Shown one piece after another: positions 304 to 33,839 of a stretch of DNA of 43,895 nt. A program made the position numbers and the translations under genes. Each line of letters begins with the position of its first letter. The stretch's first letter is position 1. The stretch lies in IMG/VR virus record IMGVR_UViG_3300035670_000430, positions 1 through 43,895 of that record, one strand, 5' to 3'. The stretch is from a virus. Below the pieces are notes generated by a model that saw nothing but the letters and a program-made list of their open reading frames with translations, was not told where the DNA came from and did not search any database.

Positions 304-510
304 ATGATTAAGAAATCAATTTACAAAAGACATATTGTGTCTAGATCTGGGTCTAGGTCTAGGTCTGCGTCTTGGTCTGGGTCTGAGTCTTGGTCTGGGT
401 CTGCGTCTGGGTCTGAGTCTTGGTCTGGGTCTGAGTCTGGGTCTGGGTCTTGGTCTAGGTCTTGGTCTAGGTCTGGGTCTTGGTCTGGGTCTGGTGAAAC
501 AAATGATTAA
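304..510 (+). CDS. Ser/Gly-rich hexanucleotide-repeat microprotein, copy 1
   Basis: A 68-residue protein with a basic head (MIKKSIYKRHIVSRSG), then alternating Ser-X dipeptides where X is Gly, Arg, Trp, Ala or Glu, and the tail SGETND. The DNA is a run of TCTNNG hexamers, so gain or loss of a unit keeps the frame. It follows a strong promoter by 14 bases. Its stop overlaps the start of copy 2 in the string ATGATTAA (8-base overlap). I do not recognise a function. It has no hydrophobic segment, so a soluble or virion-associated low-complexity protein is more likely than a membrane one. The repeated head, the shared stop/start junction and the neighbouring copies support real translation. The alternative is non-coding repeat DNA. 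Confidence 0.55.
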   Translation: MIKKSIYKRHIVSRSGSRSRSASWSGSESWSGSASGSESWSGSESGSGSWSRSWSRSGSWSGSGETND

Positions 511-655
511 GAAATTAATTTACAAAAGACATATTGTGTCTAGATCTGGGTCTAGGTCTTGGTCTGGGTCTTGGTCTGGGTCTTGGTCTGCGTCTGGGTC
601 TAGATCTAGGTCTGGGTCTTGGTCTGGGTATAGGTCTTGGTCTGGGTCTTGGTGA
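503..655 (+). CDS. Ser/Gly-rich hexanucleotide-repeat microprotein, copy 2
   Basis: A 50-residue protein with the same head as copy 1 (MIKKLIYKRHIVSRSG) followed by Ser-Gly, Ser-Trp and Ser-Arg dipeptides. Its ATG lies inside the end of copy 1 (ATGATTAA). It ends at a TGA in GGTGAAACAAATG, where copies 1 and 3 continue in frame into GETND, so this copy is slightly shortened relative to its sisters. A 5-base gap precedes copy 3. Translation is probably coupled to copy 1. Function unknown. Confidence 0.5.
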   Translation: MIKKLIYKRHIVSRSGSRSWSGSWSGSWSASGSRSRSGSWSGYRSWSGSW

Positions 656-660
656 AACAA

Positions 661-840
661 ATGATTAAGAAATCAATTTACAAAAGAAATATTGTGTCTA
701 GATCTGGGTTTCGGTCTTGGTTTTGGTCTGATTCTGGGACTTGTTCTGGGGCTGGGTCTGAGTCTGGGTCTGGGTCTGGGTGGTGTAGGTCTGGGTCTGG
801 GTCTTGGATTGGGGTTCAGTCTGGAGAAACTAATGATTAA
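661..840 (+). CDS. Ser/Gly-rich hexanucleotide-repeat microprotein, copy 3
   Basis: A 59-residue protein with the head MIKKSIYKRNIVSRSG, a more degenerate Ser/Gly/Trp body that includes two Cys residues, and the same SGETND tail as copy 1. The stop TAA overlaps the ATG of copy 4 in ATGATTAA. An in-frame GTG further upstream (637) would add only repeat-derived residues, so the conserved MIKK start was chosen. The head and tail are conserved while the body drifts, which suggests the ends matter. Function unknown. Confidence 0.5.
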   Translation: MIKKSIYKRNIVSRSGFRSWFWSDSGTCSGAGSESGSGSGWCRSGSGSWIGVQSGETND

Positions 841-7470: not shown

Positions 7471-8742
7471 TTATAGTACGTTGCGGACTAGTACACGACG
7501 ATAGTAATCGTTGGAGTTTGCAGCTAGAGATGTACCGTCGCCGCCAAGTGGATTGGCTACGATGGAATATCTTGTCTTAAATGCAATCTTCGGTGCAAAT
7601 GAGTTAGGATCAACTGCACGTACCATTGTTAGTGGAACATATGGGCAATAGAACATACCAGCATCATAAGCATTCGATCCCTTGTATCCAACAACCATTA
7701 CATCCGAGAACGAAGCACCAGCCTGAACCGAGAAGTAAGGATCGACATAAACCTTATACTTACCGTTTAAGACGCCGACGAAAGTGTTACCTGTGTCGTC
7801 AACATTTAGATCGGTAGATAGAGCAGGAGTATAATCTAGCTTACCAGCCATTGCTAGAGCAGAGGCTACGTCTGAAGAGCAGATAATGATGTTACCCTTT
7901 CCACGACGAGTTGCTTTTGCAATTGCATTTGCTTCACGTTCAACCTGGAACATTAGACCCTTGAAGCGTTCGACTGACCAACGACCATCGGAGTCTGTAT
8001 CTAGATCGAAGTAACCAGCGGCGGTTGTACCAACCTGTGCGCCTGCCTTAGCAATGCGGTAGATTGTACGAACAACTTCACGGTTGATTTCGGCCATGAT
8101 TTCCTGAGATAGAATATTCGATAGTTCGGACTCAGCATCTAGACCGTGGACAGCCTTTAGATCCTGAGCGATTTCCATTGAATATTCTGCCTTTAGAGCA
8201 CGAGTCTTGGCTTCAGTAGAGATCTTCTCAATTGTGAAACCCATTTCTCCAGCGATATCTCCCTGACCTGTGGCAGCAGACATACCTGTACCGAATAGAC
8301 CTAGTGCATCGGTTGAAGTAAATACGTTTGCATTATGAGGACCATATGGAGCAGGACCAGTTGCACCAGCGAAAGCTGTATTAGCTTCGTTGAAGAGTGC
8401 TTCGGTTGAAGATGTATTTACAACACCACCTGAACCGTAGCGTGACTTCATTGCGAAGATAAGACCTGTTGGAGCAGACATTGGCTGAACACCGCAAACG
8501 TCATAAGCCATTAGGTTTGGCATAGAACGGCGAACTAGAGCAATTAGTACTGGATCGAAACGATCAACGTTACCAGTTACGTTTGCTGGAGTTGCTTCGG
8601 TAATCATTCGGCGCTCTTCAGCTAGTGCCTTCTCCTGATTTTCTAGAAGAATGGCAGTAACTGCCTTGCGGTAGTTATCCTTGATTGGAGCTAGATCCTG
8701 GTGTTCTAGGATTGCCTTCCATTTGTTTTGTAGATTTGACAT
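7471..8742 (-). CDS. 23: Major capsid protein gp23 precursor
   Basis: A 423-residue major head protein. Diagnostic segments are LNKWK-like NLQNKWKAIL at the N-terminus, VRRSMPNLMAYDVCGVQPM, PTGLIFAMKSRYG, AVHGLDAESELSNILSQEIMAEINRE and the C-terminal KTRYSIVANP. The prohead protease site is probably after E49 in ITE|AT, which removes the N-terminal delta piece. T4 gp23 is longer (521). Residues 66-102 cover the Gol-like segment that is copied at 25455-25736. It has a TATAAATA late promoter, AAAGGAG before the ATG and a UUCG terminator after it, consistent with very high late expression. Confidence 0.97.
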   Translation of the reverse strand: MSNLQNKWKAILEHQDLAPIKDNYRKAVTAILLENQEKALAEERRMITEATPANVTGNVDRFDPVLIALVRRSMPNLMAYDVCGVQPMSAPTGLIFAMKSRYGSGGVVNTSSTEALFNEANTAFAGATGPAPYGPHNANVFTSTDALGLFGTGMSAATGQGDIAGEMGFTIEKISTEAKTRALKAEYSMEIAQDLKAVHGLDAESELSNILSQEIMAEINREVVRTIYRIAKAGAQVGTTAAGYFDLDTDSDGRWSVERFKGLMFQVEREANAIAKATRRGKGNIIICSSDVASALAMAGKLDYTPALSTDLNVDDTGNTFVGVLNGKYKVYVDPYFSVQAGASFSDVMVVGYKGSNAYDAGMFYCPYVPLTMVRAVDPNSFAPKIAFKTRYSIVANPLGGDGTSLAANSNDYYRRVLVRNVL

Positions 8743-8773: not shown

Positions 8774-8781
8774 TATTTATA
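8774..8781 (-). promoter_or_regulatory. T4-type late promoter for gene 23
   Basis: Exact TATAAATA on the minus strand, 31 bases before the gene 23 ATG. Confidence 0.85.
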
Positions 8782-13730: not shown

Positions 13731-15425
13731 TTAGAATTGACCAACAATTTCAGAGAATTCCACTGAATTTCTCACCGCAACGAAATTTAGTTGGATATAA
13801 TTAATGCTACGAGCTGGTTTTATATATATATCTCCAACAAATGAGTTTGAATCGATAACTTGTGGGGTGTTATTTGTTTCGTCACAAACCACCTTGAAGT
13901 CATAGATACCTCTTCTACCCTGCACGTCACGTAGATAAGGTTCAACTAATCCTACGAACTGAGCACGAGTGAATTCATCATTAATCTCGAATAGAGAGAA
14001 CTTAGCGGCAGTTGCAATTGCTTTCTCAAGAATAATGAACAATCTACGAACATTAATTCTGTCGAATGCAGAAGGACGAGCAAGAGTTGTCTTATCACCG
14101 AATAGAACTGTTCCGGTTCCTGATTCAGTAATAATTGGGTTAACGCCAACCTTGTATAGTTCGTCTCTCTGTGCCTTAGAAGGATTCCAAGCCAGCTTAA
14201 TTACATTCTTGATTACACCACGATTGTAACCAGCAGGCGAGAACCAAGGATCATTTGTCTGATCTGTTCGGGCACATAGACCAGCAACATCACCGTTACA
14301 AGGAATCCAACGGAATAAATCATTATACTTGTCGTATTGATACTTCCAGTTAGAATCCATTACTGCATAGGAAGAATTTGGTGATAGAGTTGTCATGAAT
14401 CCAGTAACGTTTGTTAGTGGAGTCGAGGTATTAACCACATCAGATTTCTCTGGTGAATAAAGAACGATACAATCCTTACGAACTTCAGCAATATTGCTAA
14501 TTAGATGGGTAACCGTTGCTTGATCTGCTTCACCTGCAATAATTAGATTAACATCATTCGAATCATCTACAAACTTATCATACGCAGTGATAGAGAAACC
14601 TGTAGAACCATCTAGATCATTTGCAGATACACCGAATGAGAGAGAATTGACATAAGGACCAGTTGCGCCGAATGTTGCGAAACCAGTTGATCCTGGTACG
14701 GCAGAACCCCATGCTGTTCCTGGTGCAGTTGCTCCGACGTGATTCCCCCACCAGATATAACGTGAAGTGCGGTTGATAACATCTTTGTAGTAGTTAGATT
14801 CGCCTGATTCCGTTTTTGCATCAGATGCTTTTGAAACATATGCAAACTTCTCAAGTACAGTTCCTGGTGTTCCGGTAAACTTACCGTCTTCGTCAACTAC
14901 AATAACATGAACTTCGTCATTTGCGTTTGGGTTAATTGAAGCTGCGTAGACAGAAGTTCCTGGTGCTGAATTGAATTCTGCCTTGTAAGTCCAAGTAGAG
15001 AACTTTTGTGCGTCACAGATAGAAACTAATAGAGAGTTACCTAATTCACCAGGATACTTTGCAAACCAAGCAGTTCCAGTAGTTCCTGAAGAATGATTTG
15101 TTGTGTAATCATCTTCGTTCTCTACCAGAAAACCAGTAGATCCAGAAGAAGCGTTTAAGGCAGTATTACCGATTGCACGGACTACCTTCAGATTGCCGCT
15201 GTATGAAAGAAAGTTAGCAGCCGAAAAGAATGTTGTTGCGGTATCGTTATCTGGTTTCCCGAATGTATTTACTAGTTCAACTTCGTTTGAGATTGTAGTA
15301 ATTTGATTTACAGGACCCCACGTAAATGCGCCAGCGATTGCACCGATAGAACTAGCAACTGCGGGGACAGTAGTAGTTAAATCGATTTCCGAAATATTTA
15401 CGCCTGGACTTAGCTGAAATGCCAT
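13731..15425 (-). CDS. 18: Tail sheath protein gp18
   Basis: A 564-residue contractile sheath subunit (T4 659; shorter forms are usual in marine T4-like phages). The N-terminus MAFQLSPGVNISEIDLTT and the C-terminal block with TLARPSAFDRINVRRLF, EFTRAQFVGLVEPYLRDVQG and an IQLNFVAVRNSVEF-type end are typical of the sheath core. The central 300 residues are the variable surface domain. Its TATAAATA is at 15471-15478 and AAGGAG precedes the ATG. Confidence 0.96.
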   Translation of the reverse strand: MAFQLSPGVNISEIDLTTTVPAVASSIGAIAGAFTWGPVNQITTISNEVELVNTFGKPDNDTATTFFSAANFLSYSGNLKVVRAIGNTALNASSGSTGFLVENEDDYTTNHSSGTTGTAWFAKYPGELGNSLLVSICDAQKFSTWTYKAEFNSAPGTSVYAASINPNANDEVHVIVVDEDGKFTGTPGTVLEKFAYVSKASDAKTESGESNYYKDVINRTSRYIWWGNHVGATAPGTAWGSAVPGSTGFATFGATGPYVNSLSFGVSANDLDGSTGFSITAYDKFVDDSNDVNLIIAGEADQATVTHLISNIAEVRKDCIVLYSPEKSDVVNTSTPLTNVTGFMTTLSPNSSYAVMDSNWKYQYDKYNDLFRWIPCNGDVAGLCARTDQTNDPWFSPAGYNRGVIKNVIKLAWNPSKAQRDELYKVGVNPIITESGTGTVLFGDKTTLARPSAFDRINVRRLFIILEKAIATAAKFSLFEINDEFTRAQFVGLVEPYLRDVQGRRGIYDFKVVCDETNNTPQVIDSNSFVGDIYIKPARSINYIQLNFVAVRNSVEFSEIVGQF

Positions 15426-17478: not shown

Positions 17479-18918
17479 CTACATATCAGCCCAAGAACTA
17501 TTAATATATCCTTGCATCGTGTTTGTTGTTGTATTATATATTATCATGCCGTTCGTAGGGGTTAAATTATCTCTTTGGGTAGAAGTCATTCTAGGAACAA
17601 TTAGTGCTCCACTAGTAGACGACAAATCAAGAATGGACGATGTATTTGGTGAAGTGGTTCCTATACCGACTCTCCCTGACGCATCGATACGCATTTTCTC
17701 TAGCGATGATGTGTAAAATTGGATTGTTCCGCCAGTCCCGTTAAGTTGTCCCATCACCAATTCAGAATTGTTATTATCATTCCATATTCTCGCTCTATTT
17801 GCAATTTCTGCAACATCGATTATTAAACCGGATGATAAATTATCAGGATTATTGATTCTCAGTTCACCACCTTCACTCCCAACAGAAGCCATAATAGTTG
17901 TTATTCCATTTACAGATAATGTTGTTGCGGGTGAAGTTGTTCCTATACCGACTCTTCCTGACGCATCGATACGCATTTTTTCGAAGCCATCTATATTAAA
18001 TGTATGTAAAGATGCATCAAAAAATAATGGTTTATATACAGAATTCGTTCTGTCATAAGATACTAAAGCGGATCTATCCCCAGAATCAGAGTAAAAAATC
18101 TCAAGCCCTTTTCCTGAACTGGGTGTATTGCCAGTAGTTGTTTTTGATTTTATTCTCGTGAATCCTTCAATATCAATTAAACACGAAGGAGTTCCTGTTC
18201 CAATACCCACTCTATTATTGATATTTTCCGTATATATGATATCTGAACCTACAGTTAATCCAGAAGTTATTAATCTAGTGCCGTCAAACACTAAGCCAGT
18301 TGAACCAGCAAAAGTACCTGAAAAATTAAATTGGACTTGGGTGCTAGAACCACCAGGACCAGTGGCTCCTACGAGTGCATAATCGTATAAAATTTGATGT
18401 GTTTGTTCTGGTTCTGGTCCATCATTCAAATTAAGATATTTTGCGAGTAGATGTGAATATCCTTCACCAACTGAAGTAATATCAACAGAAATACCAGATA
18501 ATGCATCAGAAGAAGTTATTGCTAATTTAATTCTATTATCATCAATCCTAATGACATAATAAGTAACCCAAGTATTCAATCCACCAATGATTTCACCGGA
18601 TTCATTAGAATAAACCACTCTGTCACCTGTAGAGAAACCATGTCCTTCCACATAAATTGAATTAGAATCGATGTCAATTAAATCAGAGAATTCACCCAAG
18701 AAGAATTTAACATCAGAAACATTCTGTGCGAGATAAATCTCATTTTGATTCACTTCGACTACATAATATATCCCGTCATTAACCAATCCGATATCATATG
18801 GCGAGGGGATAGATCCAGTGGTATACTTAACAGATGTTAGAGTACTTAACCCATGTGAAGGTATCGTAATTTTGTTATCGGCGATTGAAGCACTAGTAGT
18901 GAATGATAAAGTTGTCAT
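17479..18918 (-). CDS. Tail fiber or surface protein with GIGTTSP repeats
   Basis: A 479-residue protein. Residues about 1-150 hold two copies of a beta module (THGLST-like, then IGGLNTWVTYYVIRIDDNRIKLA), and a related module is inserted in gp15. The middle has GxGATGPGGSSTQVQF linker text, then two copies of EKMRIDASGRVGIGTTSP, a hallmark of phage fiber shafts. The end (SGALIVPRMTSTQRDNL and GMIIYNTTTNTMQGYI) is a common fiber tip or trimerisation region. It is likely a late virion adhesin or fiber. It follows gene 29-side structural genes and precedes gene 16. Confidence 0.8.
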   Translation of the reverse strand: MTTLSFTTSASIADNKITIPSHGLSTLTSVKYTTGSIPSPYDIGLVNDGIYYVVEVNQNEIYLAQNVSDVKFFLGEFSDLIDIDSNSIYVEGHGFSTGDRVVYSNESGEIIGGLNTWVTYYVIRIDDNRIKLAITSSDALSGISVDITSVGEGYSHLLAKYLNLNDGPEPEQTHQILYDYALVGATGPGGSSTQVQFNFSGTFAGSTGLVFDGTRLITSGLTVGSDIIYTENINNRVGIGTGTPSCLIDIEGFTRIKSKTTTGNTPSSGKGLEIFYSDSGDRSALVSYDRTNSVYKPLFFDASLHTFNIDGFEKMRIDASGRVGIGTTSPATTLSVNGITTIMASVGSEGGELRINNPDNLSSGLIIDVAEIANRARIWNDNNNSELVMGQLNGTGGTIQFYTSSLEKMRIDASGRVGIGTTSPNTSSILDLSSTSGALIVPRMTSTQRDNLTPTNGMIIYNTTTNTMQGYINSSWADM

Positions 18919-20274: not shown

Positions 20275-20907
20275 TTAATTATCTTCCTTTACTATATCGT
20301 AAAAGTATTTATCATCGTCGGACGTATACCATTTAGACTTACCTTCACATTTCCATATATGTTCGTTTACTTTGTAATCTGGTTTTGCTGTATCTTCTTT
20401 GTATGGATTTACAATAAAGGCTGGTTCGTACCAACATATTCTATTATTTGGTTGTGCGGCGAAGTTACCGTTATCCAATTTCAATATATGAGCAGTTTTG
20501 AAGCCGCCTTCTCCTGGATTCTCGGCAGTAGGCGAACCATACCAATCTAGAGTAAACATATATTCACCATCATACCAACACTTATCCTTGAGGAATGCAG
20601 ATGCTCTTAACCCACGAAGATAATCATATTCAATTGTAGTAAGATCATATGAGAAGCAATCCCAGAGTTGGAGAACTTCAAGTGGTTGTGGTTCGGTCTC
20701 TTTCCAACAGAAAGCTGAGATAGGCAGTCTTGCTACCTGCGCTCCGTTATTAATCATGCACGAAAAAGTAATTGCTCTGGAAGGTATCGAAGTGACACCA
20801 AACACAGAGCAATTTAAGAATTCACCGAAATGTTCTTCTAAATTATAGAGATATTCTTTCCTCAGCAGACAATAGAATAGAGGTATATTTGTTGATAAAG
20901 TCGGCAT
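20275..20907 (-). CDS. Conserved phage protein in the late block
   Basis: A 210-residue protein starting MPTLSTNIPLFYCLLRKEYL, rich in Trp, Tyr and Cys, with FGVTSIPSRAITFSCMINNGAQVARLPISAFCWKE and GEYMFTLDWYGSP. I have seen this type in T4-like phages without a known function. It is the first gene of the minus-strand late block. An ACTAAATA box sits 7 bases before its ATG, so the transcript would have almost no leader. It joins the next gene without a gap. Confidence 0.65.
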   Translation of the reverse strand: MPTLSTNIPLFYCLLRKEYLYNLEEHFGEFLNCSVFGVTSIPSRAITFSCMINNGAQVARLPISAFCWKETEPQPLEVLQLWDCFSYDLTTIEYDYLRGLRASAFLKDKCWYDGEYMFTLDWYGSPTAENPGEGGFKTAHILKLDNGNFAAQPNNRICWYEPAFIVNPYKEDTAKPDYKVNEHIWKCEGKSKWYTSDDDKYFYDIVKEDN

Positions 20908-24466: not shown

Positions 24467-24652
24467 CTACCTAAAATAAATCCAATAACCGTCAGATTCT
24501 GCTTGAACCAATCCATGTTGGTTGTATATGTGTGCTGCAATATTTTTGAAATCATCAACTAGATAATCAGAGAGAATGTGTCTACCAACAATGGTTCCAT
24601 TCTCCGATCTTGTTTGAAATGCGCCGTATTTAGGAAGCCATTCTCTATTCAT
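24467..24652 (-). CDS. Small hypothetical protein before nrdA
   Basis: A 61-residue protein beginning MNREWLPKYGAFQTRSENG and ending DGYWIYFR, looking like a small alpha-beta fold (VDDFKNIAAHIYNQHGL). The start at 24652 was chosen because it overlaps the upstream stop in ATGAATAG with GAGG about 13 bases before. An alternative ATG at 24670 would add six residues. It lies between the ATP-grasp gene and nrdA. Function unknown. Confidence 0.6.
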   Translation of the reverse strand: MNREWLPKYGAFQTRSENGTIVGRHILSDYLVDDFKNIAAHIYNQHGLVQAESDGYWIYFR

Positions 24653-25451
24653 ATGAATTATAAGCCTCATTCAAACATTCTATCAATTTATGAATATTCA
24701 CTGCATAAAATCCAGAGCAATTAATACAGTTACACTCGACGACCTTAAATGATCCGTCTCCCATCTCGGCTATATCTATAACAAAAGAGTTATCAGGTGA
24801 ATATATACTTATCATCTTATCTACAAACGAATGATGATTGGTATATTCGGAATTGTCTATATTTTTGATACAAAAATTACCAAATTCGTTGTATTGCGAT
24901 CCAGAAACAATCTCTCCATTGACAACAAAAAATCGATATTCAGATCTTATCTGTTTCGGGGATGAGAATATCATCTGATAGTCGTCTGTTATTTTCTTTT
25001 TACCTAATGAACGACCCATATATTCTGAATACTTTGTGGACAATTCCATATAACAATGAACACGTCCCTTAATCAGATTATCACCATAAGCGTCCCGAAT
25101 GTATATAGATTTGTTCAAATCTGATGCTTCTGCCTCCATTCTCGGGAGATCACCAAATTTGAATAGAGTTAAATCATGATTTATAAAATGTTCACCGTAT
25201 TCTTGTGCAAATTTGATATAATCATAATTAACTTCTTCGAAAAATACATTCATACCAATATCTTTCGCTAGTAACATCATATTAACCGAACAGAAAGGAA
25301 AATACTTATGATAGTCGTTATCAGGTAACGATATATCCCAAGTCATAGAAAATGGTATATGCTTTACTTCTTTGTACCATAGATTCTCTTTTTCGAGTGA
25401 CGATTTCAATTCATCGAATCTATCGCCAATATCCTCAATTATAAATTTCAT
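24645..25451 (-). CDS. ATP-grasp-type protein (DUF4343-like)
   Basis: A 268-residue protein. The C-terminal half has SEYRFFVVNGEIVSGSQY, then FVIDIAEMGDGSFKVVECN, the pattern of ATP-grasp enzymes where Asp and Glu/Asn bind Mg-ATP near the end. ATP-grasp enzymes join a carboxylate to an amine or thiol through an acyl phosphate. The substrate is unknown; peptide or protein tagging is possible. It sits in the nucleotide operon between the gp23-fragment gene and nrdA. The ATG is 3 bases after the upstream stop. The family is known from phages and bacteria. Confidence 0.7.
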   Translation of the reverse strand: MKFIIEDIGDRFDELKSSLEKENLWYKEVKHIPFSMTWDISLPDNDYHKYFPFCSVNMMLLAKDIGMNVFFEEVNYDYIKFAQEYGEHFINHDLTLFKFGDLPRMEAEASDLNKSIYIRDAYGDNLIKGRVHCYMELSTKYSEYMGRSLGKKKITDDYQMIFSSPKQIRSEYRFFVVNGEIVSGSQYNEFGNFCIKNIDNSEYTNHHSFVDKMISIYSPDNSFVIDIAEMGDGSFKVVECNCINCSGFYAVNIHKLIECLNEAYNSYE

Positions 25452-25454
25452 AAT

Positions 25455-25736
25455 TTAATATTCCTGGAATATTGAATTGGATTCAATATTTCTTCTATAT
25501 TCACTCTTCATTGCGAAGATAAGACCTGTTGGAGCAGACATTGGCTGAACACCGCAAAGGTCATAAGCCATTAGGTTTGGCATAGAACGGCGAACCAGAT
25601 CAATACGGCGAACCAGATCAATTAATACTGTACTATTTGTAACTGGTTTTTTGAAAAACTCTTGGATATTAATCTTATATCCAAACACCGCCAGTATAGG
25701 CGACAATAATGTAAGAATGAATTCTTTTCTATTCAT
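25455..25736 (-). CDS. Gol-like gp23-fragment protein
   Basis: A 93-residue protein. Residues 1-20 (MNRKEFILTLLSPILAVFGY) are basic then hydrophobic, like a short membrane anchor or export signal. Residues about 38-80 copy the major capsid protein: LVRRSMPNLMAYDLCGVQPM, then SAPTGLIFAMKS, with V-to-L and A-to-D changes and a doubled IDLVRR. The DNA match to gene 23 covers about 107 bp with 4 mismatches. In T4 gp23 this is the Gol segment sensed by the Lit protease. Here it lies in an early operon, 5 bases after thyX. A decoy, regulator or recombination relic are all possible. Confidence 0.65.
   Translation of the reverse strand: MNRKEFILTLLSPILAVFGYKINIQEFFKKPVTNSTVLIDLVRRIDLVRRSMPNLMAYDLCGVQPMSAPTGLIFAMKSEYRRNIESNSIFQEY
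25506..25630 (-). repeat. Copied segment of gene 23 (source 8446-8552)
   Basis: Bases 25506-25630 match 8446-8552 in the same orientation, with mismatches at 8499, 8536, 8540 and 8547 and one 18-base insertion. The insertion (25605-25622) is an exact tandem copy of 25587-25604. Two of the four changes alter the protein. Confidence 0.9.
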
Positions 25737-25741
25737 GGTAT

Positions 25742-26434
25742 CTACTTAATATGAGGGAAAATCTTATTTATCGCTTCGGCACACGTCCGAGCAACCATCA
25801 TATGCTCTTTCTGTGTTCCGTTACCACTTCTAACTTCAATGTAATGTATCCAGGATCGAATAGAACCGTTCATATACATTCTTGATAATGTATTACCTTC
25901 GGGAAGAATAACTCGTGCAACTTCTTTCGCAATACCTTGAGAAATCGCCCATTCATATCGTTCTTTCACAAAGTTAATTACTTCGGTTTGAATGGTTTCC
26001 CATTCATCAAACAATTCAATATTATCACACTCGATTGAATTCTGACGATTCTTATTATCCTGCAATCTACATTCTCTCAAGCAAAATTCTAAGTCTTTTG
26101 TCGGATCTGCATAGCGTTGGCTATATTCCTGAAATCCAGTAAAAGAAGCATGACGCAAAATTTGTCTTACAATATCTCTAGTCGAAGTAATCTCTAAACA
26201 AACATTAACCATCTGGAATGGCGAGAAATGCTTATTCTCCAATAGATAATTGAGTAGTTTCTCAGCGGTCTCGGTATTATTTTGATTGGATGGATTAGAT
26301 ACTCTCGCACAGTAAGTAATCAAATTTGTCAAGGTCGTTCGATCTTCTTCACCCAGTAGATAAAGAAACTCTGGTCCTGGTTGCGAATATGAAACCAATC
26401 TAACATTCACAATCTCGTCATAATTCTTATACAT
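25742..26434 (-). CDS. thyX: Flavin-dependent thymidylate synthase ThyX
   Basis: A 230-residue FAD-dependent enzyme that makes dTMP from dUMP using methylene-tetrahydrofolate and NADPH. The ThyX motif reads RQILRHASFTGFQEYSQRYA (the usual form is RHRxxSxNExSxRY), so the third Arg of RHR is Ala here. C-terminal text with LPEGNTLSRMYMNGSIRSW is also typical. The start at 26434 was chosen because GGTGGTAAG lies upstream and the ATG overlaps the nuclease stop (ATGTATAA); a start at 26452 has no ribosome site. It completes a dCMP-dUMP-dTMP route with the deaminase at 4510. Confidence 0.93.
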   Translation of the reverse strand: MYKNYDEIVNVRLVSYSQPGPEFLYLLGEEDRTTLTNLITYCARVSNPSNQNNTETAEKLLNYLLENKHFSPFQMVNVCLEITSTRDIVRQILRHASFTGFQEYSQRYADPTKDLEFCLRECRLQDNKNRQNSIECDNIELFDEWETIQTEVINFVKERYEWAISQGIAKEVARVILPEGNTLSRMYMNGSIRSWIHYIEVRSGNGTQKEHMMVARTCAEAINKIFPHIK

Positions 26435-26795
26435 TTTTCTTACCACCATCATAAGGAATAGCCAATCCTTCTTGGATCAGTTTCAAATTAATAGAGTTAT
26501 TCGTCTCAAATTCTTTCTCAGATTCGTATATTGATCCAAGAACCCTTCCATACTTATCTGCCTTGTCTAACTCTGTAACTAGTATAACATACTTGTTCGT
26601 TAAAGTAAAGGTTAATTTTGATTTTGCCTTTGCTGCTTTCTCACGAGCCTCTAGATCCTTAGAGTTTAACTCGAATGCATCAATTCCAGATAACCTAACT
26701 CTCTTAGTGATATTGATATGAAATCCAAGATCAATCTCACAATCCACGGTATCGCCGTCTATTACTTTAATTACTTTTGCTTTGTAAGTATACAT
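26427..26795 (-). CDS. Staphylococcal-nuclease-like (thermonuclease) protein
   Basis: A 122-residue SNase-fold enzyme. The start MYTYKAKVIKVIDGDTVDC leads to the Asp that holds Ca; RVRLSGIDAFEL gives the catalytic Arg and Glu, and DKADKYGRVLG the second catalytic Arg. SNase enzymes cut DNA and RNA to 3' phosphates. No signal peptide is seen, so it probably acts in the cell, perhaps on host DNA or RNA. The start at 26795 is set by GGAAGAGAG and a TAATG junction with the primase gene. Confidence 0.88.
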   Translation of the reverse strand: MYTYKAKVIKVIDGDTVDCEIDLGFHINITKRVRLSGIDAFELNSKDLEAREKAAKAKSKLTFTLTNKYVILVTELDKADKYGRVLGSIYESEKEFETNNSINLKLIQEGLAIPYDGGKKNV

Positions 26796-27825: not shown

Positions 27826-27854
27826 ATTATAACTTAAGCGACACAATATGTCAA
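27826..27854 (-). promoter_or_regulatory. Consensus early promoter for the primase operon
   Basis: On the minus strand TTGACA (27849-27854), 17 bp, TATAAT (27826-27831). The ATG at 27814 is 11 bases past the -10 box, so the expected leader is about 4-5 bases. Confidence 0.85.
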
Positions 27855-32111: not shown

Positions 32112-32813
32112 ATGTCTAGTATAATAAAAGTTAATTCTATAGGTATTCAAGGTGCTATCGGTTTTACTGGTTCAACAGGAATCGGTGCTACTGGATTCAT
32201 TGGTTCTACTGGATTTCAGGGATCTACAGGATTTCGAGGTGCTACTGGATTAGGTGCTACTGGATTCACCGGATCTACTGGGTTGCGTGGTTCTACTGGA
32301 TTTCAGGGATCTACAGGATTTCAAGGTGCTACTGGATTAGGTGCTACTGGTTTAACTGGTGCAACCGGAACATTTTCTGGTTCTAATCGTGAAATTCTGT
32401 ATATAGATAATACAACTGTAATTGGTGCGACAGGATTAACTTGGGTAAAAGAGTCAAATACTCTAAATTTAACAGGACCGCTTTCGATATCACCTGCCTT
32501 AATTTCCGGTAAGAGAATTGAAAATATAGGCATCACCCAAACCGTGATTGATGAATCACCAATAGTCGCATTCAGAACTGTAAAATATGTACTACAAGTA
32601 TCATACTTAACTAACTATCAGTGCTCTGAAATACTACTAATTCATAACGGAACAACCGCCGATATATCAGAATATTCTATTGTCCATACTTCGATCAATC
32701 CGCTCGTGACTTACACTACTGATATCTCGGGTGGAAATATCAGGTTAATAGCAACAGCAGCAGCCGGATCAACAACAAAAATTGATTTATATAAAATAGC
32801 TATAGGAGTATGA
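32112..32813 (+). CDS. Collagen-like virion-surface protein
   Basis: A 233-residue protein. Residues 12-95 are a collagen-type repeat of Gly-Phe/Leu/Ser-Thr-Gly or Gly-Ala-Thr-Gly units (for example [21 protein letters not shown] shortened). DNA units are in multiples of 9, so copy number can change in frame. The C-terminal 95 residues form a beta module ([20 protein letters not shown], then [17 protein letters not shown]) that also makes up the whole protein at 33531 and the end of the protein at 32815. It probably forms trimeric surface fibrils. Confidence 0.75.
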
Positions 32814-32814
32814 A

Positions 32815-33522
32815 ATGGCTCAGACTAATATATTAAGGCAGAATCAAAAAACTGCCATAATTCAGGTCTTAGGTTCCGCAATCGAAGATCAGGTTGTTTT
32901 TAATCCATCATCAATCTGGGAACCAGGATCAACAGAAATTCTATCGGCTTCTATAGATAAAATTTCATGGATAGTTACTGGTGGGATTGTTACTTTGTAT
33001 CTAGGCGAAAGTATCATAGGAAGTTTTTCTGGTAATGGTGAAATTGATTTAGCAGAAGATTATTCCGCAAAAAATACTGATTTTTCTTTTTTGCGAGGAC
33101 AACTCAGGGTAGTAACAAATACTACAAATAATTATTTTCTAATATTACGCACAAAACGAATCTCAATATCAACCGAAAATGCTTCATATACATTCGTTAA
33201 TGATTTCGGTGAAACTACTATTGTAACGTTCGTTAATGATTTAGGGGTAACCGATACAGTTATAGATGAAGTACCTACAACAAATGCTAAATCTATAAAA
33301 TATACAATTCAGGCTTCTTACTCTAATACATATCAGGTTTCGGATATCACTCTACTACATAATAATACAACTTCCGATATAACAGAATATGCAATTGTTC
33401 ATACATCTTCAATTCCGTATGTGACTTATTCGACAAATATTATCGGTGGGAAAATGAGATTAATTGCAAGATCACTATATGAACCAACTAGATTGATTAT
33501 CCAGAAAACAGTAATAGGATAA
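32815..33522 (+). CDS. Two-module virion-surface protein
   Basis: A 235-residue protein. Residues 1-120 are a paralogue of the 130-residue protein at 11004-11396. Residues about 140-235 are the beta module shared with both neighbours (SIKYTIQASYSNTYQVSDIT, then HNNTTSDITEYAIVHTS). Between them a short repeat, TFVNDFGETTIVTFVNDLG, links the modules. This is a clear fusion of two mobile surface units. Its role is unknown, probably capsid or fiber decoration. Confidence 0.72.
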   Translation: MAQTNILRQNQKTAIIQVLGSAIEDQVVFNPSSIWEPGSTEILSASIDKISWIVTGGIVTLYLGESIIGSFSGNGEIDLAEDYSAKNTDFSFLRGQLRVVTNTTNNYFLILRTKRISISTENASYTFVNDFGETTIVTFVNDLGVTDTVIDEVPTTNAKSIKYTIQASYSNTYQVSDITLLHNNTTSDITEYAIVHTSSIPYVTYSTNIIGGKMRLIARSLYEPTRLIIQKTVIG

Positions 33523-33530
33523 ATAAAAAT

Positions 33531-33839
33531 ATGGCTACAACTTATTCAAATCTTGGTACTTCACCCACAGCAGTTGATACAAATCCGATTAATACATACA
33601 GATCGGTGAAGTATATTATACAAGCTTCTTATCTGACTAATTATCAGATATCAGAAATTATTCTGATTCATAACGGCACAACCGCCGATATAACAGAATA
33701 CGCAATAACACACACGTCAACTAATCCGCTCGTGACTTATACGACTGATATATCCGGTGGTAATCTAAGATTGATTGCAGCCGCCGCAGCCGGATCAACA
33801 ACGAGTTTGGTAATTCAGAAGAATTTAATAGCACTATAA
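33531..33839 (+). CDS. Stand-alone copy of the shared C-terminal surface module
   Basis: A 102-residue protein almost entirely made of the module found at the ends of the two genes before it: SVKYIIQASYLTNYQISEII, then [36 protein letters not shown]. Identity to the collagen-like protein end is high by eye. Three versions in a row suggest tandem duplication followed by fusion. Function unknown. Confidence 0.72.
   Translation: MATTYSNLGTSPTAVDTNPINTYRSVKYIIQASYLTNYQISEIILIHNGTTADITEYAITHTSTNPLVTYTTDISGGNLRLIAAAAAGSTTSLVIQKNLIAL

What the first reader, a model, noticed from the sequence alone, without database searches (positions are those of the whole stretch)
25455..25736. Stand-alone Gol-like copy of gp23 in an early operon
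Seen: the 93-residue protein here carries residues that match gp23 66-102 almost exactly, in the same strand sense, with about 107 bp of DNA at 4 mismatches. Known: in T4 the equivalent short stretch of gp23 (Gol, roughly residues 93-122) bound to EF-Tu activates the Lit protease of the e14 element and aborts infection. Inference: the phage makes this sensor-trigger segment early and apart from the capsid, fused to a hydrophobic N-terminus. It could be a decoy that ties up or mistimes a Lit-like defence, a regulator of EF-Tu or of gp23 folding, or a relic of recombination. The match covers the Gol stretch rather than a random part of gp23, which argues against chance.
Basis: partly seen in the sequence, partly recalled or inferred. 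Interest (0 to 1): 0.85.

Follow-up and report, generated by a model that had tools for sequence, protein, structure and literature searches.

The report
Conserved stand-alone capsid-fragment gene in phages
A group of uncultured T4-like bacterial viruses carries a small early gene that fuses a short hydrophobic leader to a fragment of the virus's own major capsid protein; the fragment includes the stretch that in T4 triggers a bacterial suicide defence, and related viruses keep the gene, so it is not a random scrap, but what it does has not been tested.

Summary
ORF 25455-25736(-), 93 aa, contains a 99-bp copy (96/99) of gp23 codons 67-99, in frame and in the same sense. The segment aligns with T4 gp23 97-133, over Gol. 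Such dispersed near-identical copies are rare in related contigs (2 pairs in 1.45 Mb).

It is not a one-off. The same leader (MNRK[EQ]F..L.SP.LA.FGYKINIQ), directly after ThyX, occurs in two other IMG/VR lineages. One (5 contigs from 5 samples) has an 80-aa homologue whose Gol segment is old: only 70% nt identical to that phage's probable own gp23. The other has a 73-aa form whose tail matches a C-terminal piece of gp23 better than Gol. Sister phages lack the gene; GenBank phages show no sign of one. The window's copy looks like an older small gene whose gp23 part was recently overwritten from its own gp23.

The gene sits in a nucleotide-metabolism operon behind a consensus sigma70 promoter; gp23 has a late-type TATAAATA box.

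Function is inferred only. Best guess: a leader-anchored gp23 mimic competing for a gp23-binding host factor (0.33). Close rival: functional leader, passenger tail. Lit/EF-Tu decoying is untested; selection on the Gol part is suggestive, not proven.

The parts
25455..25736 (-). 93-aa small gene: hydrophobic leader + gp23 segment + short tail
   Evidence: homologues in L003/L004/L007/L009/L010 (80 aa) and L023 (73 aa)
25644..25736 (-). Leader, residues 1-31 (MNRKEFILTLLSPILAVFGYKINIQEFFKKP), hydrophobic stretch residues 6-22
   Evidence: Conserved in all three lineages (19 of the first 25 residues invariant); best 17-residue mean hydropathy 1.7-2.1
25506..25604 (-). gp23-identical tract (96/99 nt)
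25587..25622 (-). 18-bp tandem duplication ATTGATCTGGTTCGCCGT x2 (IDLVRR twice), window only
8446..8544 (-). Matching donor stretch in gp23 (codons 67-99), Gol region
   Evidence: T4 gp23 97-133 by alignment
7471..8742 (-). Major capsid protein gp23 (423 aa)
   Evidence: PHROG 138 E=1.6e-151; PDB T4 gp23 E=5e-77
7567..7587 (-). gp23 C-terminal stretch (IAFKTRY) whose DNA matches the tail of the L023 small gene 20/21
25742..26452 (-). ThyX, always the gene immediately upstream of the small gene
   Evidence: PHROG 85 E=4e-55
24645..25451 (-). R2K-type ATP-grasp protein, downstream neighbour, optional (absent in L007/L009/L010 and L023)
   Evidence: Pfam R2K_3 7e-19
27826..27854 (-). Perfect sigma70-type promoter TTGACA-17-TATAAT upstream of the primase-TNase-ThyX-small gene run
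   Evidence: consensus match, not proof
8774..8781 (-). TATAAATA late-type box 39 nt before gp23
25455..25490 (-). A+T-rich nested inverted repeats (AATATT x3) at the gene's 3' end, absent in L003

Best explanation
A small accessory gene of one clade of T4-like phages, made from a hydrophobic leader and a piece of gp23, and read in the early/middle operon before gp23. The leader probably puts it in or on the inner membrane (inferred). The gp23 piece is kept similar to the capsid protein and, in the window, was refreshed by gene conversion from the phage's own gp23 (inferred from sequence). I propose that it acts as a gp23 mimic: made ahead of the capsid protein, it occupies whatever host factor binds this part of gp23 (EF-Tu with a Lit-like protease, another capsid-sensing defence, or a chaperone), so the factor is blocked or titrated when gp23 appears. 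Shown: architecture, homologues, position, recent copy in one lineage and old copy in another. Inferred: membrane location, timing, binding partner, effect.
For: Same leader and same locus in three lineages. An 80-aa homologue keeps PNLMAYDICGVHPMSTPSGLIFAMK although its nt identity to its probable own gp23 is only 70%, so the Gol part has been kept for long without being a fresh copy. Two alleles of that lineage differ at 3 sites, all synonymous. Pairwise dN/dS of that Gol segment against the window gp23 is 0.14/0.81, similar to gp23 against gp23. The ATP-grasp neighbour comes and goes while the small gene stays. In the third lineage the tail again resembles gp23, another piece (P<=0.001 against shuffles for all six gp23s tried; HMM i-E 2.7e-4 for two targets; DNA 20/21): repeated gp23 sourcing suggests that gp23 likeness matters. 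Dispersed copies of this kind are otherwise rare. Early-type promoter against a late-type gp23 box. Precedents: capsid proteins trigger Lit, CapRel and Thoeris (PMC3014915, PMC9712102, PMC11312562), and phage DSAD1 blocks DSR2 by competing with the structural protein that triggers it (PMC11087589).
Against: No binding partner, host or defence system is known for this phage. A piece carrying Gol could trigger a Lit-like defence early rather than block it. The third lineage lacks most of Gol. A stricter count of bases unique to the 80-aa copy (3 synonymous, 5 non-synonymous) is compatible with no selection on the Gol part. Structure prediction is uninformative (mean pLDDT 52). The window copy has a tandem duplication inside the segment.
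Confidence: 0.33

Rival explanations
1. The leader is the working part (a small membrane protein unrelated to gp23) and the C-terminal tail is a tolerated passenger that recombination with gp23 sometimes rewrites.
For: Leader is the only part common to all three lineages and is nt-conserved between window and L003 (90%, dS 0.34, against dS of about 1.5 or more for neighbours). Tail differs in length, origin and has a tandem duplication. Unique-base count does not show constraint on the Gol part.
Against: Tails come from gp23 in all three lineages rather than from anywhere in the genome; the 80-aa copy keeps an open, recognisable Gol segment despite age.
Confidence: 0.3
2. Regulator of gp23 itself: the membrane-anchored N-arm peptide binds gp23, its chaperone or the prohead nucleation site and tunes folding or assembly.
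For: The segment lies just after the likely processing site (ITE/A by resemblance to the T4 rule, my inference), in the N-arm of the mature protein (sequence; alignment to T4). The other piece found (gp23 C-terminus) could lie near it in the HK97 fold (my inference; no coordinates were available).
Against: Made from an early-type operon, not with the head genes; no known T4-like phage needs such a factor; sister phages do without it at this locus.
Confidence: 0.16
3. Relic: an accidental in-frame insertion of gp23 DNA into a small ORF, inherited and decaying.
For: Window Gol part is a near-identical recent copy; tandem duplication; the L023 form lacks most of Gol; few sequences.
Against: Open reading frame kept in three lineages at neighbour-gene dS of about 1-2.5; three synonymous and no non-synonymous differences between alleles; neutral simulation over the full divergence predicts 15-20 amino-acid changes, 8 are seen, although placing only half the divergence on this branch does not reject neutrality.
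Confidence: 0.17
4. Assembly or chimera artefact.
For: Source is a metagenome contig; the stretch is near-identical to another part of it.
Against: Same gene at the same locus in six contigs from six other samples, in two diverged versions.
Confidence: 0.02

Closest known systems
Gol peptide of T4 gp23 (activator of Lit, substrate EF-Tu; e14)
   Same: Same stretch of the same protein (small 46-82 = T4 97-133); most Gol-region residues kept.
   Different: In T4 it exists only inside gp23 and is made late; here it is a separate gene with a leader. EF-Tu or Lit activity not tested.
DSAD1 (phage inhibitor of DSR2)
   Same: Proposed logic: a small phage protein occupies the site at which a structural protein would trigger defence (PMC11087589).
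   Different: No sequence relation tested or claimed; here the competitor would be a literal piece of the trigger.
Capsid-sensing defences CapRel-SJ46 and staphylococcal type I Thoeris
   Same: Show that major capsid proteins are sensed directly (PMC9712102, PMC11312562).
   Different: Other phages, other capsid proteins; presence in this host unknown.
gp24 and other gp23 paralogues
   Same: Genes derived from gp23.
   Different: gp24 is a full-length vertex protein; this is a fragment of about 40 residues on a new leader.

Membership tests
gp23 / T4-type major capsid protein (Pfam Gp23, PHROG 138) | sequence match to the family profile | tested here: met
   Residues 45-85 match Pfam Gp23 at 56.6 bits (cut-off 24.4), E=4e-15; PHROG 138 E=1.6e-15
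gp23 / T4-type major capsid protein (Pfam Gp23, PHROG 138) | full-length HK97-fold capsid subunit | tested here: not met
   Only 41 of 376 profile positions; 93 aa. It is a fragment, not a capsid protein
Gol-type activator peptide | covers the Gol stretch of gp23 | tested here: met
   Aligns with T4 gp23 97-133; 29-residue Gol described in PMC3014915
Gol-type activator peptide | binds EF-Tu and activates Lit cleavage | not testable with these tools
   needs a biochemical assay
Phage anti-defence decoy | expressed before the trigger protein | tested here: inconclusive
   Early-type consensus promoter and no late box before it, late-type box before gp23; no transcript data; TATAAATA is not enriched over chance in the window as a whole
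Phage anti-defence decoy | match to a known defence or anti-defence protein family | tested here: inconclusive
   No PADLOC match; PADLOC is mainly a library of defence proteins, so absence says little
Phage anti-defence decoy | restores phage growth on a host with the defence | not testable with these tools
   needs a plaque assay
Stand-alone small gene family (leader + gp23 piece) | shared leader and shared locus after ThyX | tested here: met
   Three lineages
Stand-alone small gene family (leader + gp23 piece) | Gol piece present | tested here: inconclusive
   Two of three lineages; L023 tail matches the gp23 C-terminus better

The most novel reading that the evidence does not exclude
A phage gene that repeatedly takes up pieces of its own capsid protein onto a constant membrane leader and keeps them matched to the current gp23 by gene conversion, so that an early-made, self-updating capsid mimic blunts host systems that sense the capsid protein.
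Probability: 0.15. Interest if true: 0.9.

Novelty: new variant of a known kind. Interest (0 to 1): 0.6.

Why it matters
Several bacterial defences sense newly made capsid protein. A phage gene that makes the sensed stretch on its own, earlier and tethered, would be a counter-measure not seen before and would bear on why gp23's most conserved stretch is also a defence trigger. Even if the function is different, it is a clear case of a new small gene born from a capsid-gene fragment, kept in several lineages and rewritten by gene conversion. The proteins can be tested directly in the laboratory T4/Lit system.

Tried and rejected
No DNA relative of the window in GenBank phages. Leader alone: no match in GenBank phages even at E<=10. 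The 80-aa query gives 2389 places in 2388 GenBank phage records; all 60 listed lie in genes annotated as head proteins or in the same place in less annotated records, so no sign of a second stand-alone copy there. No plasmid match and no cellular genome match. Scan of 54,010 short ORFs in 447 held sequences with a gp23 profile: only this family; leader profile: only this family. First idea that the L023 tail is Gol with a deletion: put second to a C-terminal piece because the scores are 44-52 against 27-38, though FDPV at its start may be N-terminal. Claim of clear purifying selection on the Gol part: withdrawn after the stricter count. A tree of the 111-nt segment puts the window copy beside the window gp23 and the L003 copy on a long branch, with weak support. 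AlphaFold model too poor to use. RNA hairpin at the 3' end: not more stable than shuffles. An RNA-level decoy is unlikely because the L003 copy is only 70% nt identical to its probable gp23. Paper searches found no report of a stand-alone capsid-fragment gene, in an open-licence library only.

Full report
OBSERVATION. The window is a 43.9-kb viral contig of a T4-like phage; its gp23 is about 60% identical to those of Methylophilales phage Melnitz and Pelagibacter phage HTVC008M, with no near DNA match in GenBank. The ORF at 25455-25736(-) is real as described. Its middle holds a 99-bp stretch with 96 identities to gp23 codons 67-99. An 18-bp tandem duplication (IDLVRR twice) overlaps its start; when this is collapsed the likeness to gp23 runs over 111 nt (104 identities), and the core 90 nt differ at one base. 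By alignment the segment is T4 gp23 97-133, i.e. the Gol region. Pfam Gp23 and PHROG 138 recognise it. Comparable dispersed near-identical repeats are rare: two pairs in 1.45 Mb of related contigs, both in one contig.

IT IS A GENE FAMILY. IMG/VR holds two further versions at the same place, directly after ThyX. (i) An 80-aa protein, MNRKEFILILLSPLLALFGYKINIQKFFKKPFTFDPALITLVRKSFPNLMAYDICGVHPMSTPSGLIFAMKNEYRKDVQS, in five contigs from five samples; its two alleles differ at three synonymous sites. Some of these contigs have the ATP-grasp gene next to it and some do not, but the small gene stays. (ii) A 73-aa protein in L023 with the same leader. Sister phages L166/L167 run from ThyX straight into the ribonucleotide reductase gene without it. 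Cellular genomes and plasmids gave nothing, and GenBank phages gave about one place per record, in the head-protein gene in the rows listed.

HISTORY OF THE gp23 PART. The contig of the 80-aa version in sample 3300042453 overlaps, over 1465 bp at 100% and at contig ends, a contig from another sample that carries a gp23, which is therefore most likely that phage's own. The 80-aa Gol segment is only 70% nt identical to it and 78% to the window gp23: an old segment. In the window, by contrast, the Gol part is nearly identical to the phage's own gp23, while compared with L003 the leader is 90% identical and the Gol part only 77%. The two stand-alone copies also share K(S/N)EYR(R/K) after the segment where the nearest gp23s have KS(R/K)YG. 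The simplest reading is one old fusion, later overwritten in the window lineage by gene conversion from gp23. In L023 the tail VPLIEQGVQPKPIIAFKTRYGV matches the C-terminal part of gp23 (window residues 369-392) with scores 44-52 against 27-38 for the Gol end, P<=0.001 against shuffles, and 20/21 bases (profile i-E 2.7e-4 for two targets). So the same leader carries a different gp23 piece there, though the match is short.

SELECTION. Leader: between window and L023, 7 amino-acid changes for 18 base changes against 12 expected, P=0.002; between window and L003, P=0.065; between L003 and L023, P=0.17. Gol part: pairwise dN/dS about 0.17 against the window gp23, but this mixes in gp23's own constraint. 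A neutral simulation over the full divergence is rejected, over half of it is not, and a strict count of unique bases (5 non-synonymous, 3 synonymous) is compatible with neutrality. I therefore claim conservation of the gene, constraint on the leader as likely, and constraint on the Gol part as suggestive only.

TIMING AND PLACE. The gene lies in the run primase-TNase-ThyX-small gene, after a perfect TTGACA-17-TATAAT at 27854-27826, with no TATAAATA before it. gp23 and the genes starting at 15425 and 13665 have TATAAATA 30-53 nt before them, although the motif is not over-represented in the window overall. The start has no clear Shine-Dalgarno sequence, like a number of other genes here. Residues 6-22 are hydrophobic after a positively charged N-terminus: a short membrane anchor or signal-like leader (inference). 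The structure model is too poor to add anything.

MECHANISM. Best guess: an early capsid mimic that occupies a gp23-binding host factor. The capsid protein is a known trigger of Lit, CapRel and Thoeris, and DSAD1 shows a phage protein competing with a structural trigger for the sensor. Against it stand the absence of any partner evidence, the risk that an early Gol would trigger rather than block, and the L023 version. The rival that the leader is what matters and the tail is a passenger is almost as likely. Regulation of gp23 folding or assembly, and a decaying relic, are less likely.

VERDICT. Its interpretation is partly supported: the gene is conserved and is not a mere accident, but Lit/EF-Tu decoying is untested. 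A new small gene family, of real interest and testable in laboratory T4/E. coli systems.

Noticed in passing
L004:2279-4546 against L003:6992-8773: The ribonucleotide reductase large-subunit gene downstream of the small gene has an intein-like insertion in L004 (755 aa, ...CCLTGDTEIVL...NNILVHNS...) and none in L003, whose loci are otherwise 97-99% identical.
   Followed up: no
L365:6107-9235: The same reductase gene in the sister contig is interrupted by about 1.3 kb that includes an HNH-like ORF (MDYQKIYRDLMVKAKRQNRVKTKEHYFEKHHIIPECLFK...).
   Followed up: no
window 24645-25451: R2K-clade ATP-grasp protein (PHROG 7313) beside the small gene; present or absent among close relatives that keep the small gene.
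   Followed up: partly
window 25455-25490: Nested A+T-rich inverted repeats (AATATT three times) at the 3' end of the small gene, absent from relatives; looks like a small insertion scar. Not unusually stable as RNA.
   Followed up: partly
window 304-807, 32569-33802, 17648-17982: Local repeats at 71-94% identity, the second set between neighbouring ORFs 32112-33839.
   Followed up: no
window 20275-20907: Protein matching PHROG 3704 (ferredoxin, auxiliary metabolic gene), 84-90% identical in sister phages, one of the most conserved of the proteins compared.
   Followed up: no
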